Shown here: piece after piece, positions 4,694-12,684 of the stretch
How the letters are laid out: each line of letters begins with the position of its first letter
Position numbering within the stretch: position 1 is the stretch's first letter
Source: Rhodocyclales bacterium
Lineage (GTDB): Bacteria; Pseudomonadota; Gammaproteobacteria; Burkholderiales; Rhodocyclaceae
Direction: 5' to 3'
DNA length: 64,000 bases
NCBI GenBank assembly: GCA_016235765.1
Contig: JACRIZ010000006.1
Coordinates: 1 to 64,000, forward strand
Notes under the pieces: model-generated
Told to the model about the DNA's origin: nothing
Database searches by the model: none
Seen by the model: only the letters and a program-made list of their open reading frames with translations
Translations under genes and position numbers: made by a program

Positions 4694-6037
<1,344 letters not shown>

Positions 6038-6048
6038 CGCTGCCTCGC

Positions 6049-7164
6049 TCAGTCGGCGAGTTCGTAGGCCGAACTACGCCCGCCGGCATCCATCTTGCGC
6101 AGAATGCCCAGCGAGATCAACTGGCTGATGTCGCGTAGCGCCGTATCGGACGAGCACTTGGCGATCGCGGCCCACTTGCTGTTCGTCAGCTTGCCTTCAA
6201 AACCATCGAGCAGCCGGTTGAGCACTATTGCCTGCCGCTCGTTCAGCGGTGTGCCCGCCCAGCGATGCCAGAAACGCGCTTTCGCCAAAACTGCTTCGAG
6301 CGTCTTCTGAGCACTTTCTACCGCGCGCAAGAGTGCTCCGAGGAACCAGGCCAGCCACTCGGTGACATCGAGCGTGCCCTTCTCCGTGCGCTCCAGGACG
6401 TCGTAGTAAGCCTTGCGCTCGCGCTGAATCTGCGCGGACAGGCTGTAGAAGCGCTGCGGGCTGCGCTCGGCGCGAGCCAGGAAGAGGTCGCCCACCGCAC
6501 GGGCGAGACGGCCGTTGCCGTCATCGAAGGGGTGCAGCGTAACCAGCCACAAGTGCGCCAGCCCGGCCTTGATCAGGGCCGGCTCGACCGTGGCGGTATT
6601 GGCCCACGTCAGGAAATTCGCAGCCTCGCCCTCCAGGCTGGCGGCGGGTGGCGCTTCGTAGTGGACACGCTGGCGCTGGGTCGGTCCGGACACTACCTGC
6701 ACCGGGCCGTTTGCATCGTCGCGCCAGGCGCCGACGCGGATTTTCGCCAGGCCGCTGTACCCGGTGGGAAACAAGGCCGCATGCCAGCCGAACAAGCGTT
6801 TCCGCGTCAGCGGTTCGGCACAGTGGGCCGTGGCGTCAAGCACCATCTCGACCACGCCCTCGACATGCCGATCCATGGGGGCAAGCGCGCCAATATCCAC
6901 GCCCAGGCGACGGGCAATCGACGAGCGCACCGACTCGACGTCGAGCTGCTCCCCCTCGATTTCGCTGGTCTTGACCACGTCCTCGGTCAGTGCCGCCAGG
7001 CTGGCCTGGTCGCGCAGTGCCATGCCAACATCCGCCAGCCTGCCCAGCAACTGCCCTTGCGCCCGGCTCACTTCGGCCAACGGCCCGGCCAGCGCGGCGA
7101 GGTCGAAATGCATCGCCGGCCAATCGGGCAACTGCCAGATGTACCGTTTATCTCCGCTATTCAT
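6049..7164 (-). CDS. Fic family protein with N-terminal inhibitory helix (class II, active-site motif intact)
   Basis: A 371-residue Fic protein; most such enzymes transfer AMP to target proteins. The Fic core HPFDDGNGRLAR has catalytic His211 and the anion-binding GNGR. An inhibitory motif TSEIEG (residues 66-71, pattern [S/T]xxxE[G/N]) lies before the Fic fold, as in class II self-inhibited Fic proteins, and the first 60 residues resemble the DUF4172 cap. The C-terminal 80 residues look like a winged helix (DTALRDISQLISLGILRK). It starts 65 bp after a duplicated hoxC 3-prime end and stops 11 bp before hoxJ, so it probably shares the hoxJ transcript. The target is unknown. Confidence 0.88.
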   Translation of the reverse strand: MNSGDKRYIWQLPDWPAMHFDLAALAGPLAEVSRAQGQLLGRLADVGMALRDQASLAALTEDVVKTSEIEGEQLDVESVRSSIARRLGVDIGALAPMDRHVEGVVEMVLDATAHCAEPLTRKRLFGWHAALFPTGYSGLAKIRVGAWRDDANGPVQVVSGPTQRQRVHYEAPPAASLEGEAANFLTWANTATVEPALIKAGLAHLWLVTLHPFDDGNGRLARAVGDLFLARAERSPQRFYSLSAQIQRERKAYYDVLERTEKGTLDVTEWLAWFLGALLRAVESAQKTLEAVLAKARFWHRWAGTPLNERQAIVLNRLLDGFEGKLTNSKWAAIAKCSSDTALRDISQLISLGILRKMDAGGRSSAYELAD

Positions 7165-7229: not shown

Positions 7230-7264
7230 GTCAATGCACCGTACAAACCATGCACGGATCGAAG
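7230..7264 (-). repeat. direct repeat copy B: orphan duplicate of the hoxC 3-prime end
   Basis: These 35 bp match the last 35 bp around the hoxC stop (8805-8839) at 33 positions. Read on the minus strand they encode FDPCMVCTVH followed by TGA, the exact C-terminus of HoxC, yet no upstream hydrogenase reading frame is attached. The two copies bracket one fic gene. This looks like the scar of an insertion at the hoxC end that restored the gene and left the old end behind. Confidence 0.85.
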
Positions 7265-7301
7265 CGGGGAAAGGGGCCCCTTTGCTGCAGGTCTATGTCG
7301 T

Positions 7302-8699
7302 TCATGGGTTCGTCTTCACCAACTCACTCCAAGACGCGTATTCGAGGGGGCGGAGACCGAAACGGATGGCGTTCCCCTCATGCAGACTCTTGAATTCGTC
7401 CTGAATCAGTTCGACAAATCGATCATGATCGCCTTCGGCAATTGTCGTGGGAATCGCCGATCGAATTGCCGTGTCGCTGACGGGATGCCCTCCGCACACG
7501 ATCGCACGCACAACTTCGCTGACCTCGGCGCGATGACGCAGTCGAAACGTGTCTGGAGGTACCAATTGCTGGCGAACCGCCACATAGTGCTGACATGAGC
7601 GTTCATAGGCCCAGACGAATACGTCGCGCAGCAATTCGATGCGATTCAACTCATAAACGCCAATCACTGCATCCACGTAGGCGCGGTCCGGTACATCGAT
7701 GAACGACAACGGGCAGAGGTTCTCGCGAAACAGCGGGATGTTCGCCGCGAGGCGCGACACGCGCTTATTGACGTCCTGGAACGGCTGCAGATAGGGCAGG
7801 TGCACCATCAGAAAGAAAGCTTGCTCGAAGGGATCTCGAATATCGGCCGCCATATGAATCACGATGCCAAACAACTCGTCGAGTCGCTGCGGCAGCGCGA
7901 TCGGCAGGTAGGTGCTGCCACCGATCTCGACGGCATGGTCGCGTACCCGTCCGCCGGCCTGCGGATTGGGCAGCAAGCCGTCGGACAGGAGCGCATGGAT
8001 CGCGAGCATGGTCGGAATATTGACGCCGATGCCGTCGACGCCCCTGACCAGGTACTCGATGGCCGCCTTGTGGTTCAGGATCATCTGCGTTTCAAGGGCA
8101 TCCTTGCCCTCGGCAGCCTGGCCGAACGCAATTAGCCGCTCAGTGTCGAGCCGACTGTACGTATTGCCTTCCAAGCGCGACGACGCCCACGAGAGGTCAA
8201 TCAGCAGGCGGTTCATGATGTCGCGGGCGAAGGTTCCTGCCGGCGCCTGCTCGACTGGCGAACGGCCCAAGGTATGCACTTGCTTGCGTAGGGATTCGGA
8301 AAGATAGTAAGTCTGGTTGGGGTGGTAGCTTTCGAGAAGATCCTGGTTGTAACTGACAGGACGACGTTGCGTTCTCGGCTGACGTACATAGGCCTTGATC
8401 GCCTCGCCTTCGGCGGACAGTGGGACATAGAGTTCGCCTGCCGCGCTGAGTGTGTTGTGTTGCTGAACGATTGTTGCCTGACCGACAATCGGCGCCAGCC
8501 GATATTTCAACGTCCGTCGTCCGCCGGAAGTCAGGATGCGTTCCTTCGCCACCAGCGCTGCCAGACGACGTTGAAGGGTACGGCGCGAGATCGCATCGCC
8601 GACTTTGTCCAAGAGGCCATCCAGGCCGATACCGTCCGGATACCGACCGATCAACTCGGCGACCCAGTCCAACTCCTCGGCGGGAACAACTTTCGGCAT
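7302..8699 (-). CDS. Fic-fold protein with N-terminal HTH and degenerate catalytic motif
   Basis: A 465-residue Fic-fold protein. Residues 1-75 look like a winged-helix DNA-binding domain (RRTLQRRLAALVAKERI). An inhibitory-type motif SSRLEG with Ser173 and Glu177 precedes the Fic core. The core reads QPFQDVNKRVSR from residue 305: the usual catalytic His is Gln305 and GNGR is VNKR. Normal AMP transfer by the His mechanism is therefore unlikely; related Q-P-F-x-D-V-N-K-R proteins are often annotated only as Fic family. The gene is visibly less GC-rich than the hydrogenase genes around it and sits between two copies of the hoxC end, with a palindrome-rich AT-rich region upstream, so I infer it was inserted between hoxC and hoxJ. 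Confidence 0.85.
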   Translation of the reverse strand: MPKVVPAEELDWVAELIGRYPDGIGLDGLLDKVGDAISRRTLQRRLAALVAKERILTSGGRRTLKYRLAPIVGQATIVQQHNTLSAAGELYVPLSAEGEAIKAYVRQPRTQRRPVSYNQDLLESYHPNQTYYLSESLRKQVHTLGRSPVEQAPAGTFARDIMNRLLIDLSWASSRLEGNTYSRLDTERLIAFGQAAEGKDALETQMILNHKAAIEYLVRGVDGIGVNIPTMLAIHALLSDGLLPNPQAGGRVRDHAVEIGGSTYLPIALPQRLDELFGIVIHMAADIRDPFEQAFFLMVHLPYLQPFQDVNKRVSRLAANIPLFRENLCPLSFIDVPDRAYVDAVIGVYELNRIELLRDVFVWAYERSCQHYVAVRQQLVPPDTFRLRHRAEVSEVVRAIVCGGHPVSDTAIRSAIPTTIAEGDHDRFVELIQDEFKSLHEGNAIRFGLRPLEYASWSELVKTNP

Positions 8700-8714
8700 G
8701 GCGACTGTCCATCG

Positions 8715-8800
8715 TTATGGCGCAAGATAATTATATGCGCCACTTTATTTGGCGTTAATACTCTATTTGCGCCATAAAGAAGTATCTTTATGGCGCAAAT
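8715..8800. promoter_or_regulatory. palindrome-rich AT-rich control region of the inserted fic gene
   Basis: The motif TGGCGCAA/TTGCGCCA recurs here. ATTTGCGCCATAAAG and its exact complement face each other across 6 bp at about 8765-8800, a 15-6-15 inverted repeat. Upstream, TGGCGCA and TGCGCCA face each other across 11 bp at about 8718-8742, and a lone GGCGTTAA lies between. The region runs from the fic ATG to the hoxC stop, has far lower GC than its flanks, and looks like a tandem operator for a dimeric regulator, possibly the HTH of the fic product itself. Confidence 0.6.
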
Positions 8801-8804
8801 GGCC

Positions 8805-8839
8805 GTCAATGGACGGTACAAACCATGCACGGATCGAAG
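8805..8839 (-). repeat. direct repeat copy A: genuine 3-prime end of hoxC
   Basis: This is the intact counterpart of the repeat at 7230-7264. It contains the hoxC stop codon and its last ten codons. The two copies differ at two positions inside the coding part and define a unit of about 1.58 kb carrying one fic gene. Confidence 0.85.
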
Positions 8840-10248
8840 GACCGGACGATGTGCTGGACGGCGGCCGGGGCCTTCTCGCCCTCGCCGACCGGTACGCCGA
8901 CCAGCGCCCGTTCGAGTGCGCCGGGGCGGCCGGCGGCATCGCGCGGCGAGAAGTTCCAGGTGGTGGGGGCGATGATCTGGTAGTTGTGGATGCGGCCGCG
9001 GCGGATGGAGAGCCAGTGGCCGAGCGAGCCGCGCGCGGCTTCGACGAGGCCGGCGCTTTCGGCTTCGGCCGGCAGTTCGCCTTCGAACGAGAAGGCGATG
9101 CCGGGCCGCAGGGCTTCGGCCCAGGCTTCCATGGCCGGCACCAGCCGTGCGACTTCCAGCAGGCGCGCAACGACACGCGCCTCGACACCGCCGCCGTCGC
9201 GGGCCACGAGGTCGCGCGCCAGCGGATGCCCGGCAACGACCTGGCGCGCCAGCGCGCCGGTCTCGACCACTTCGCCGCCCAGGCGCGGCGCCTTGCACCA
9301 GGTGTAGGCAGCCGCCTTGTCGGCGAGCGGCAGCGTCGAGCCGCGCCGCGGCTCCAGCGGTGCCTCGGCATCGGCATACCAGGCGTGGCTGACGTCCTCG
9401 ACGATCTGCGCCGGGTCGAGCAATGCCGGGCCACCGGCCCAGACGCCGGCCGGCCACCAGCGGCCGGCCTCCAGCTCGTAGGCGCCGTAGCTCATGAAAG
9501 CGACGCCGGCATGGCCGAGCGCGCGCAGCTCGAGCGCCTGCGAGGCACGCAGGAAGAGGCCGAAATCGCTGGCGGCGTGCCGCTCGGCCCAGGCAGCGAG
9601 TTCTGCTGCCGAAGCGATCGCGGCGACCGCTTCGAGCGTATCGCCGAAGGTGGAGCGTTCGAGGAACTGGCGGAACTCGCGCAGCACGCGCAGCAGGCGC
9701 AGGCGCTCCGAGGCGCTGAGCGGATGCGTCGAGCCGCCGGGCTGCAGGGTCAACGTGTGCGGCCACTTGCCGGCCAGCAGGCCCATGGCGCGCATCAGCC
9801 CGGCGCGCGCCGGCAGGAATTCGCCCGCCGCCGTGCCGGTGACGGCCTTGAAGCGCGTCGAGGCGGCGTGCCACCACGGCTGACTTTGGTAGCAGTCACG
9901 CGCGAAGTCGGGCATGAAGAAGAGATAGAAATGCGTCACGTGGTCGGCGAGGTTCTCGACCGACTGGATCAGGTTGGCGGCAAGCCGGCCGTTCTCGGGC
10001 GGCTTGATGCCCATGGCGCCGGCCAGCGCCTGCGACGCGGCGGCCGATTGCGACACCGAGCAGATGCCGCAGATGCGCGGCACGAAGACCAGCGCATCGA
10101 GCGGCGCCTTGCCTTGCAGGATCTGCTCGAAACCGCGATAGAGCGAACTCCTGACGTGCGCCTCGCGCACCCGGCCGTCGGCGACGTCGAGGATCACTTC
10201 CAGGTCGCCTTCGACCCGGTTGAACGGGCCGACGATCAATCGCCTCAT
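8806..10248 (-). CDS. hoxC: regulatory (H2-sensing) hydrogenase large subunit HoxC/HupV
   Basis: Large subunit (480 aa) of a cytoplasmic H2 sensor that signals to HoxJ. The first active-site motif is RICGICSVSQ, with Gln where energy-conserving enzymes have His, a feature of sensor hydrogenases. The second motif is DPCMVCTVH and the protein ends there, with no C-terminal extension to be cleaved, as known for HoxC/HupV. The ATG at 10248 lies 7 bp after the hoxB stop; longer in-frame starts would run through hoxB. The 3-prime end is the site of the duplicated sequence beside the fic genes. Confidence 0.95.
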   Translation of the reverse strand: MRRLIVGPFNRVEGDLEVILDVADGRVREAHVRSSLYRGFEQILQGKAPLDALVFVPRICGICSVSQSAAASQALAGAMGIKPPENGRLAANLIQSVENLADHVTHFYLFFMPDFARDCYQSQPWWHAASTRFKAVTGTAAGEFLPARAGLMRAMGLLAGKWPHTLTLQPGGSTHPLSASERLRLLRVLREFRQFLERSTFGDTLEAVAAIASAAELAAWAERHAASDFGLFLRASQALELRALGHAGVAFMSYGAYELEAGRWWPAGVWAGGPALLDPAQIVEDVSHAWYADAEAPLEPRRGSTLPLADKAAAYTWCKAPRLGGEVVETGALARQVVAGHPLARDLVARDGGGVEARVVARLLEVARLVPAMEAWAEALRPGIAFSFEGELPAEAESAGLVEAARGSLGHWLSIRRGRIHNYQIIAPTTWNFSPRDAAGRPGALERALVGVPVGEGEKAPAAVQHIVRSFDPCMVCTVH

Positions 10249-10255
10249 GGACGCC

Positions 10256-11241
10256 TCATGGCTTCTTCGCCGGGCGCGGCCAGCGGATGATGTGGTCGGT
10301 GGTGGCGTTCTTGCGCACCCGCGCCGGCGTCGCCGACTTCGACAGCGCCGCCAGGGCGATGAACCAGGCCTTGGGCATGTCGAGCGGCAGGCCGATCGGA
10401 ATGCCGGCGATCTTCGGCGTGCGCGTGAATGGGTGGCCCGGCTCCTCGAAGGCAGGCTCGGTGCAACTGATGCAGGCGTAGCCGCCGCTGGTGCAGGAAC
10501 CGCTGCCGTTCCAGGGCCGCTGGTTGCAGTCGGCATGCGCCTGCGTGCCCTTGCAGCCCATGTGCTCCATCAGACAGCCCTGGTCGCCGTTCTTCTCGGC
10601 ACTGGCCTTGAACTCGTAGAACTCGTTGCGATTGCAGCCGTGATGTACCAGCACGTCGGTGTAGAAGCGCGGCCGGGCCAGGTCGTCGAGTTCGCGGTCG
10701 GTCATTTCGCCGCGCGCCAGCGCCAGTAGGGTCTCGGTGACCCAGTCGGGATGCGTCGGGCAGCCCGAAACATTGACCACCGGCAGGCCGGCACCGGCGC
10801 GAAACTGGCTGCCGAGCAGGCCGCCCGGGTTGGCCCCGTCGTATTGCAGGCCGCAAGCGTCGGTCGGATTGATGCCCGCGGCGGTGACGCCGCCGAAAGC
10901 CGCGCAGGAGCCCATGGCCACGACATGCCGGGCGCGCGCCGCGAGCAGGCGCACCCACTCGATCATCGGCCGCTCGGTGCCGGCCATGACGTGGAAGCGG
11001 CCGCTGCCCGCCGGACCGCGCAGCAGCGAACCTTCGATGCAGAGGACGTCGAACGGCGTGCTGCCGTCTACGCAGGACTCGAGGATGGCCAGCGCCTCGT
11101 CGGCGCAGGCTTCGGAAATGCTCGGATGCCAGACGATCTCGATGCTGGCGTCACGCAGCGTGGCGAACAGCGAGCCCCATTCGCTGCCCAGCCAGGAAAG
11201 CGTGCAGCCGCCGCAGCCGCCCGATTGCAGCCAGACGACTT

Positions 11242-11245
<4 letters not shown>
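10256..11245 (-). CDS. hoxB: regulatory hydrogenase small subunit HoxB/HupU
   Basis: Small subunit (329 aa) of the H2 sensor. It begins MKVVWLQSGGCGGC with no Tat signal, so it stays in the cytoplasm, as expected for HoxB. Proximal-cluster cysteines are in GGCGGCTLS, MGSCAAFGG and SGCPTHPD; later cysteines (HHGCNRNEFYEF, CLMEHMGCKG, CISCTEPAF) would hold the other clusters. The ATG overlaps the hoxA stop by 4 bp (ATGA) and hoxC follows after 7 bp, so hoxA, hoxB and hoxC are one transcriptional unit. Confidence 0.95.

Positions 11246-12684
<1,439 letters not shown>

What the first reader, a model, noticed from the sequence alone, without database searches (positions are those of the whole stretch)
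7230..8839. A fic gene inserted at the 3-prime end of hoxC, with the end of hoxC duplicated on the far side
Two 35-bp direct repeats (7230-7264 and 8805-8839, 33 of 35 identical) both encode the HoxC C-terminus FDPCMVCTVH and stop. The far copy has no reading frame attached. The unit between carries a lower-GC fic gene and splits the usual hoxABC-hoxJ order. This resembles site-specific integration into a gene end that restores the gene. No integrase or transposase is visible, so the mechanism is open.
Basis: seen in the sequence. Interest (0 to 1): 0.7.

Follow-up and report, generated by a model that had tools for sequence, protein, structure and literature searches.

The report
Fic gene inserted at hoxC end
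A small Fic (toxin- or defence-like) gene has been inserted exactly into the end of a bacterial hydrogen-sensor gene, bringing its own copy of that gene's last 35 letters and pushing the original ending to its far side; in related bacteria the same spot has taken up other defence-type genes again and again, with no integrase of their own.

Summary
A 35-bp direct repeat (33/35) flanks a 1.57-kb unit that carries one fic gene at the hoxC 3' end, and it occurs nowhere else in the genome. Both mismatches are synonymous. The far copy has the family-typical ending and the copy on hoxC the atypical one, so the far copy looks like the displaced native end.

The hoxC 3' end is a recurrent insertion site. 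In a survey of 122 hoxC loci, six besides the window carry other cargo followed by a second copy of hoxC's last ~19-47 bp. Cargoes are HEC-01, two SoFic-type Fic genes, HipBA, a DUF4143 ATPase and a PIN gene; most are toxin-antitoxin or candidate defence genes. Sister genomes supply empty sites for G258, G207 and G142. Fic relatives elsewhere show flanking target duplications at 10 of 75 loci, against 0 of 199 control ORFs (p = 1.5e-6).

No integrase lies on the window's contig. Two viral contigs carry a detached PCMVCTVH-stop sequence, one of them 112 bp from a lambda-type integrase, as expected of an attP. I favour att-site insertion by a recombinase supplied in trans or since lost. One-sided host recombination is a serious rival. 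This is a new variant of a known kind.

The parts
8806..10248 (-). hoxC, large subunit of the H2-sensing regulatory NiFe hydrogenase; its last ~11 nt appear to have come with the insert
   Evidence: ORF; Pfam NiFeSe_Hases; 87-88% identical protein in same-genus genomes G004 and G001
8805..8839 (-). near copy of the hoxC tail (attL-like); ...TGTACCGTCCATTGAC, atypical synonymous codons
8712..8780 (.). fic promoter region with inverted GCGCCATAA-type repeats, probable operator; similar GCGCCA repeats stand before the Methyloversatilis fic
   Evidence: inverted repeat I6; sequence comparison
7302..8699 (-). fic1, the cargo: 465-aa Fic-fold protein with motif QPFQDVNKRVSR (His to Gln) and inhibitory motif SSRLEGN
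7230..7264 (-). far copy of the hoxC tail (attR-like), no frame attached; ...TGTACGGTGCATTGAC, family-typical = displaced native end
6049..7164 (-). fic2, a DUF4172+Fic gene with canonical HPFDDGNGR motif, between the far copy and hoxJ; no hoxC tail on its own far side
4694..6037 (-). hoxJ-type PAS histidine kinase; directly abuts hoxC in the same-genus genome G001

Best explanation
The 1.57-kb fic unit is an att-flanked insertion in the 3' end of hoxC. Incoming DNA carried fic1 plus a copy of the conserved hoxC tail. Recombination inside that tail (within the shared 24-bp stretch CTTCGATCCGTGCATGGTTTGTAC) joined native hoxC to the incoming tail, so HoxC is unchanged as a protein, and left the native tail as a frameless stub beyond fic1. 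The same gene end serves as a recurrent insertion site in this family and takes mostly toxin-antitoxin or candidate defence genes. I think most likely a tyrosine recombinase of the kind used by temperate phages cut this site, acting in trans or since lost, which makes the unit a CIME-like integrase-less islet. Shown: the insertion structure, its recurrence with different cargo, empty sites for three parallel cases, and a viral contig with a hoxC-tail sequence beside an integrase. Inferred: that such an integrase acted here, and that fic1 is selected as a defence or addiction gene.
For: Repeat real and unique. Both differences synonymous; far copy = family consensus. Six further hoxC loci with a duplicated tail around unrelated cargo: G258 HEC-01, G113 and G142 SoFic-type Fic, G207 HipBA plus SWIM protein, G327 AAA_14+DUF4143, G167 PIN plus IS remnant. 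Empty sites: the far copy plus downstream of G258 runs continuously from hoxC in G010 (94% over 506 nt), and that of G207 in G090 and G230; G142 lines up with the same empty site. Most shared segments are a narrow 19-47 nt at the extreme 3' end. Viral contigs: PCMVCTVH-stop in L202, 112 bp from an Arm-DNA-bind_1/Phage_integrase gene next to an Exc excisionase, and in L204. L201 has CMVCTVH-stop 0.9 kb from one contig end and a PF00589 gene about 1 kb from the other. A fic1 relative sits beside a tRNA-like 46-bp perfect repeat (L219). Precedents read: e14 in icd, 163-bp duplicated end (PMC6379469); CIMEs keep attL and attR after losing integration genes (PMC5704250).
Against: No integrase lies between the repeats of any case inspected, and none on the window's contig. 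Fic1 relatives have duplications of 20-213 bp in unrelated targets, including a gene start (L206), which does not look like one recombinase. fic1 also sits at hoxC ends without a tail duplicate in Methyloversatilis and in L217. The viral attP case rests on one convincing contig, whose integrase had no relatives in the viral scan. No exact empty site (hoxC-fic2-hoxJ) was found for the window itself.
Confidence: 0.5

Rival explanations
1. Host recombination without any site-specific recombinase: DNA from another genome with a hoxC-fic1 arrangement recombined in the highly conserved hoxC tail on one side and by microhomology on the other (homology-facilitated illegitimate recombination), or as a small circle by a single crossover. 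This is the 'insertion with long target duplication' described for restriction-modification genes.
For: hoxC-fic1 exists without a duplicate in Methyloversatilis and Casimicrobiaceae, and the window's fic1 groups weakly (89/77) with exactly those. Fic1 relatives show variable duplications (20-213 bp) at 10 of 75 loci, 0 of 199 control ORFs. In L252 14 of 16 differences are third-codon-position, so two functional alleles met. Precedents: RM insertions with long variable target duplications (PMC3874152, PMC3031569) and HFIR for T6SS modules (PMC5361080).
Against: No donor-like tract is visible in hoxC upstream of the tail. Most tails end within a narrow 19-47 nt, whereas random illegitimate junctions should spread over the gene. 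Synonymous divergence is equally expected of an attP carrying a gene end.
Confidence: 0.35
2. Remnant of a prophage or larger element once integrated at the hoxC end; everything but an accessory defence gene was deleted.
For: A viral contig with an attP-like hoxC tail exists. G167's insert also holds transposase debris.
Against: Seven separate cases mostly hold just one clean cargo operon of 1.4-3.8 kb; no phage gene was recognised in the inserts inspected.
Confidence: 0.1
3. Exact target duplication (transposition-like or tandem) followed by drift of the frameless copy.
For: Differences in L238, L207 and L235 are spread over codon positions, as drift would give.
Against: In the window both changes lie in the coding copy, not in the free stub; in G258 the stub matches the sister species G010. 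L252 rejects pure drift (p = 7e-4).
Confidence: 0.04
4. Chance repeat or assembly artefact.
For: The genome is a fragmented assembly of 136 contigs, 87% complete.
Against: Score 29 against 11 in shuffles; unique in the genome; same structure in other assemblies with independent cargo.
Confidence: 0.01

Closest known systems
CIMEs / decayed integrative elements at gene 3' ends (PMC5704250)
   Same: Cargo flanked by attL- and attR-like repeats, target gene restored, integration genes absent, displaced gene end on the far side, accretion at one site.
   Different: Here 1.4-3.8 kb, mostly one defence or TA operon; no autonomous parent element found in this family; excision not shown.
e14 in icd and DLP12 in argU (PMC6379469)
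   Same: The insert supplies the gene's end; the old end persists as a frameless duplicate (163 bp and 47 bp).
   Different: Those are prophages with many genes; the target here is a hydrogen-sensor gene and the unit has no integrase.
Insertion with long target duplication of restriction-modification genes (Nobusato 2000; Furuta 2010, as cited in PMC3031569 and PMC3874152)
   Same: Selfish or defence genes inserted without a mobility gene and flanked by long, variable direct duplications.
   Different: Cargo is Fic and other TA or defence genes; duplications at hoxC are short (19-47 bp) and confined to the gene's last codons.
Homology-facilitated illegitimate recombination of T6SS effector-immunity modules (PMC5361080)
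   Same: A conserved stretch anchors one end, non-homologous cargo follows, old pieces are shifted downstream and can stack (compare L235).
   Different: There effector genes are displaced and immunity genes kept; here the host gene stays intact.

Membership tests
Site-specific integrative element / CIME | Direct repeats (attL/attR) at both ends, one completing the target gene | tested here: met
Site-specific integrative element / CIME | Integrase gene inside (autonomous element) | tested here: not met
   no PF00589 match on contig C23; CIMEs by definition lack it
Site-specific integrative element / CIME | Empty site in a close relative | tested here: inconclusive
   Shown for parallel cases G258, G207 and G142; for the window only G001 with hoxC abutting hoxJ, which lacks fic2 as well
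Site-specific integrative element / CIME | A recombinase that recognises this site | tested here: inconclusive
   Viral contig L202: hoxC-tail sequence 112 bp from a lambda-type integrase and excisionase
Site-specific integrative element / CIME | Excision or mobilisation | not testable with these tools
   needs PCR or reads across the circle junction
Insertion with long target duplication (RM-type) | Restriction-modification cargo | tested here: not met
   cargo is Fic
Insertion with long target duplication (RM-type) | Long variable flanking duplication without a mobility gene | tested here: met
   35 bp here; 20-213 bp around Fic relatives; no integrase
Fic AMP-transferase | Fic fold | tested here: met
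   PF02661, 36.1 bits, cut-off 24
Fic AMP-transferase | Catalytic motif HxFx(D/E)GN(G/K)RxxR | tested here: not met
   QPFxDVNKRxxR: Gln at the His position in 88 of 90 family members, no motif match in the other two
Fic AMP-transferase | Inhibitory motif (S/T)xxxE(G/N) | tested here: met
   SSRLEGN; 90 of 90 homologs

The most novel reading that the evidence does not exclude
Small defence or Fic units form a class of integrase-free mobile units that carry the 3' tail of their target gene as a landing pad. They leave by recombination between the two tail copies and enter new genomes by host recombination in that conserved tail, so any gene with an ultra-conserved end can become a defence-gene dock.
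Probability: 0.12. Interest if true: 0.85.

Novelty: new variant of a known kind. Interest (0 to 1): 0.55.

Why it matters
Small defence and toxin-antitoxin genes change places between genomes constantly, often with no visible mobility gene, and how they land is poorly known. Here one landing site, the end of the hydrogen-sensor gene hoxC, can be read across about 120 loci, with empty sites, at least seven cargoes and a duplicated gene tail that marks each event; a viral contig suggests a recombinase that may open it. That makes the competing mechanisms (integrase in trans, decayed phage, host recombination) testable at a single site. The excess of flanking duplications around one Fic family (10/75 against 0/199) is a second, general handle.

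Tried and rejected
Pure drift after an exact target duplication: disfavoured for hoxC and rejected for L252. A donor-derived tract in hoxC upstream of the tail: sliding identity to same-genus and Methyloversatilis genomes showed none, but a congeneric donor would be invisible. hoxC tail as uniquely conserved recombination patch: only partly true; the longest shared exact match ends in the last 40 nt for 15% of genome pairs against about 3% expected, but other patches do better. attP in named phages and plasmids: phage hits were at noise level and most plasmid hits were annotated hydrogenase genes. Relatives of the L202 integrase in viral contigs: only itself. A hoxC-tail duplicate around fic2: none seen. 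Literature linking fic and hoxC: none in the library.

Full report
Observation. Two direct repeats at 7230-7264 and 8805-8839 agree in 33 of 35 positions. On the minus strand both encode FDPCMVCTVH-stop. The copy at 8805 ends hoxC (8806-10248, large subunit of the regulatory NiFe hydrogenase); the copy at 7230 has no frame. With up to three mismatches these are the only two places in the 3.16-Mb genome, and the repeat scores 29 against at most 11 in shuffled flanks. Between them lies one gene, fic1 (7302-8699 -), with a palindromic operator-like promoter at 8712-8780; the unit is lower in GC. Beyond the far copy comes a second, unrelated fic gene (6049-7164 -, DUF4172+Fic) and then hoxJ. No integrase lies on the contig: the six PF00589 matches of the genome are on other contigs.

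Which copy is native. The two mismatches are third-codon-position changes. The far copy reads ACG GTG CAT TGA, the common ending in the family; the copy on hoxC reads ACC GTC CAT TGA, which is rare. So the end now on hoxC appears to be the newcomer and the far stub the displaced original, as in gene-end integration.

Recurrence at hoxC. The degenerate tail motif was scanned in 299 genomes of the family and 399 of the order. Two copies occurred only in the window's genome, in G258 (a Methyloversatilis genome) and on two contigs of G315. I then surveyed 122 hoxC loci with up to 10 kb of downstream DNA. Shorter or decayed second tails turned up at G113, G167, G207 and G327 and G142. The inserted cargo is different each time: AAA_21+DUF4276 (PADLOC HEC-01), two reverse-oriented Fic_N+Fic genes (PADLOC SoFic), HipA with an HTH partner and a SWIM-type protein, AAA_14+DUF4143 (PADLOC PDC-S01), and a PIN gene with transposase debris. 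The shared segment is 47, 35, 31, 21, 20 and 19 nt in the clear cases and about 25 nt, decayed, in G142. The G327 case is the weakest: its score of 17 equals chance matches seen elsewhere in the same scan, and it is accepted because it lies at the gene end.

Empty sites. In G258 the far copy and the next 500 nt are continuous with hoxC of G010 at 94% identity; in G207 they are continuous with hoxC of G090 and G230. G142, in the same genus as G207, has a different insert at the same point and lines up with the same empty site. For the window no exact empty site was found; the same-genus genome G001 has hoxC abutting hoxJ, and G004 has other DNA there.

fic1 itself. Relatives of fic1 also stand at hoxC ends in six genomes of the Methyloversatilis genus (in five of them without a tail duplicate; in G258 the tail duplicate belongs to the other cargo) and, without a duplicate, in a Casimicrobiaceae genome, L217. 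In a 90-protein tree the window's fic1 joins exactly these, but weakly (89/77; L217 was recognised as a hoxC case only afterwards). A linked hoxC-fic1 pair may therefore have been passed on. The family keeps the Fic inhibitory motif SSxLEGN in 90 of 90 members but has Gln in place of the catalytic His in 88 of 90, with no motif match in the other two.

A wider pattern. Among 75 testable fic1 relatives from other genomes (roughly 50-71% identity), ten are flanked by direct repeats scoring 17 or more, against a maximum of 14 in 150 cross-locus pairs and none in 199 other ORFs of the same loci (Fisher p = 1.5e-6). Targets include the 3' ends of a PIN gene (about 200 bp), a nuoBCD-like gene (213 bp), hsdR (166 bp), a helicase with three stacked copies (L235), a tRNA-like 46-bp repeat (L219) and the start of hsdS (33 bp); these gene names are read from the translations, not scanned. 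In L252 14 of 16 differences are at third codon positions, so two functional alleles met; in L238, L207 and L235 drift is enough.

A possible recombinase. A scan of viral contigs for the tail gave eight hits, about what chance would give by my own estimate. The stricter pattern with the preceding Pro codon and the stop left two, where I estimate about 0.05-0.1 by chance; the collection's total size is not stated, so that figure is rough. One of the two, L202, lies 112 bp from a gene with lambda-type arm-binding and Phage_integrase domains, next to an Exc-family gene: the layout of an attP. A third contig, L201, has CMVCTVH-stop near one end and an integrase near the other. The hosts are unknown, and the L202 integrase had no relatives in the viral scan.

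Mechanism. Best supported: recombination inside the conserved tail, with the incoming DNA supplying the end of hoxC. Whether by an integrase acting in trans or since lost, or by one-sided host recombination, is not decided. The narrow 19-47-nt position, the restored gene and the viral sites favour the first; the variable duplications and varied targets of the Fic family, and the absence of any integrase, favour the second. Both have precedents: e14 in icd with a 163-bp duplicated end (PMC6379469); CIMEs (PMC5704250); long target duplications of restriction-modification genes (PMC3031569, PMC3874152); HFIR of T6SS modules (PMC5361080). Background: 10-18% of variable segments in E. coli and other species are flanked by repeats of at least 5 bp, mostly under 30 bp (PMC2884548).

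Verdict. A real insertion with restoration of the gene end, at a site hit repeatedly by small, mostly toxin-antitoxin or candidate defence genes. The kind is known; the site, the cargo pattern and the Fic statistics appear not to have been described in the library searched.

Noticed in passing
window 7302-8699 and 90 homologs: The whole Fic1 family has QPFxDVNKRxxR where the Fic catalytic motif should begin with His (88 of 90), while keeping the SSxLEGN inhibitory motif: a possible non-AMPylating or otherwise altered Fic family.
   Followed up: partly
L202 10908-10934 with 11024-12175 and 12156-12482 (IMGVR_UViG_3300017698_000053): Viral contig with a PCMVCTVH-stop sequence beside a lambda-type integrase and excisionase: candidate phage attP for the hoxC 3' end.
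   Followed up: partly
L204 905-931; L201 12781-12801: Two further viral contigs with detached (P)CMVCTVH-stop sequences close to genes read as lysis genes; L201's record has an integrase near its other end, L204's has none.
   Followed up: partly
L085 6431 and L086 5096 (G315): The hoxC tail plus roughly 90 bp around it is present on two contigs, one after full hoxC and one ahead of hoxJ: a larger insertion or rearrangement at the same point, not resolved.
   Followed up: partly
L235 2-4486: A helicase 3' end appears three times with different small genes between the copies, the last gap holding fic: looks like serial insertion at one gene end.
   Followed up: no
window 6049-7164: fic2 has 71-84% identical relatives in more than ten genomes of other genera and families, so it too seems to spread horizontally; in G092 it lies downstream of hoxC next to an IS element (L132).
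   Followed up: partly
L238 1-3725: A fic1 relative flanked by a duplicated PIN-gene end lies next to a gene that reads as a NiFe hydrogenase small subunit, another hydrogenase neighbourhood.
   Followed up: no
L154 920-1702 (G167): Transposase (rve-like) debris inside the insert at the hoxC end.
   Followed up: no
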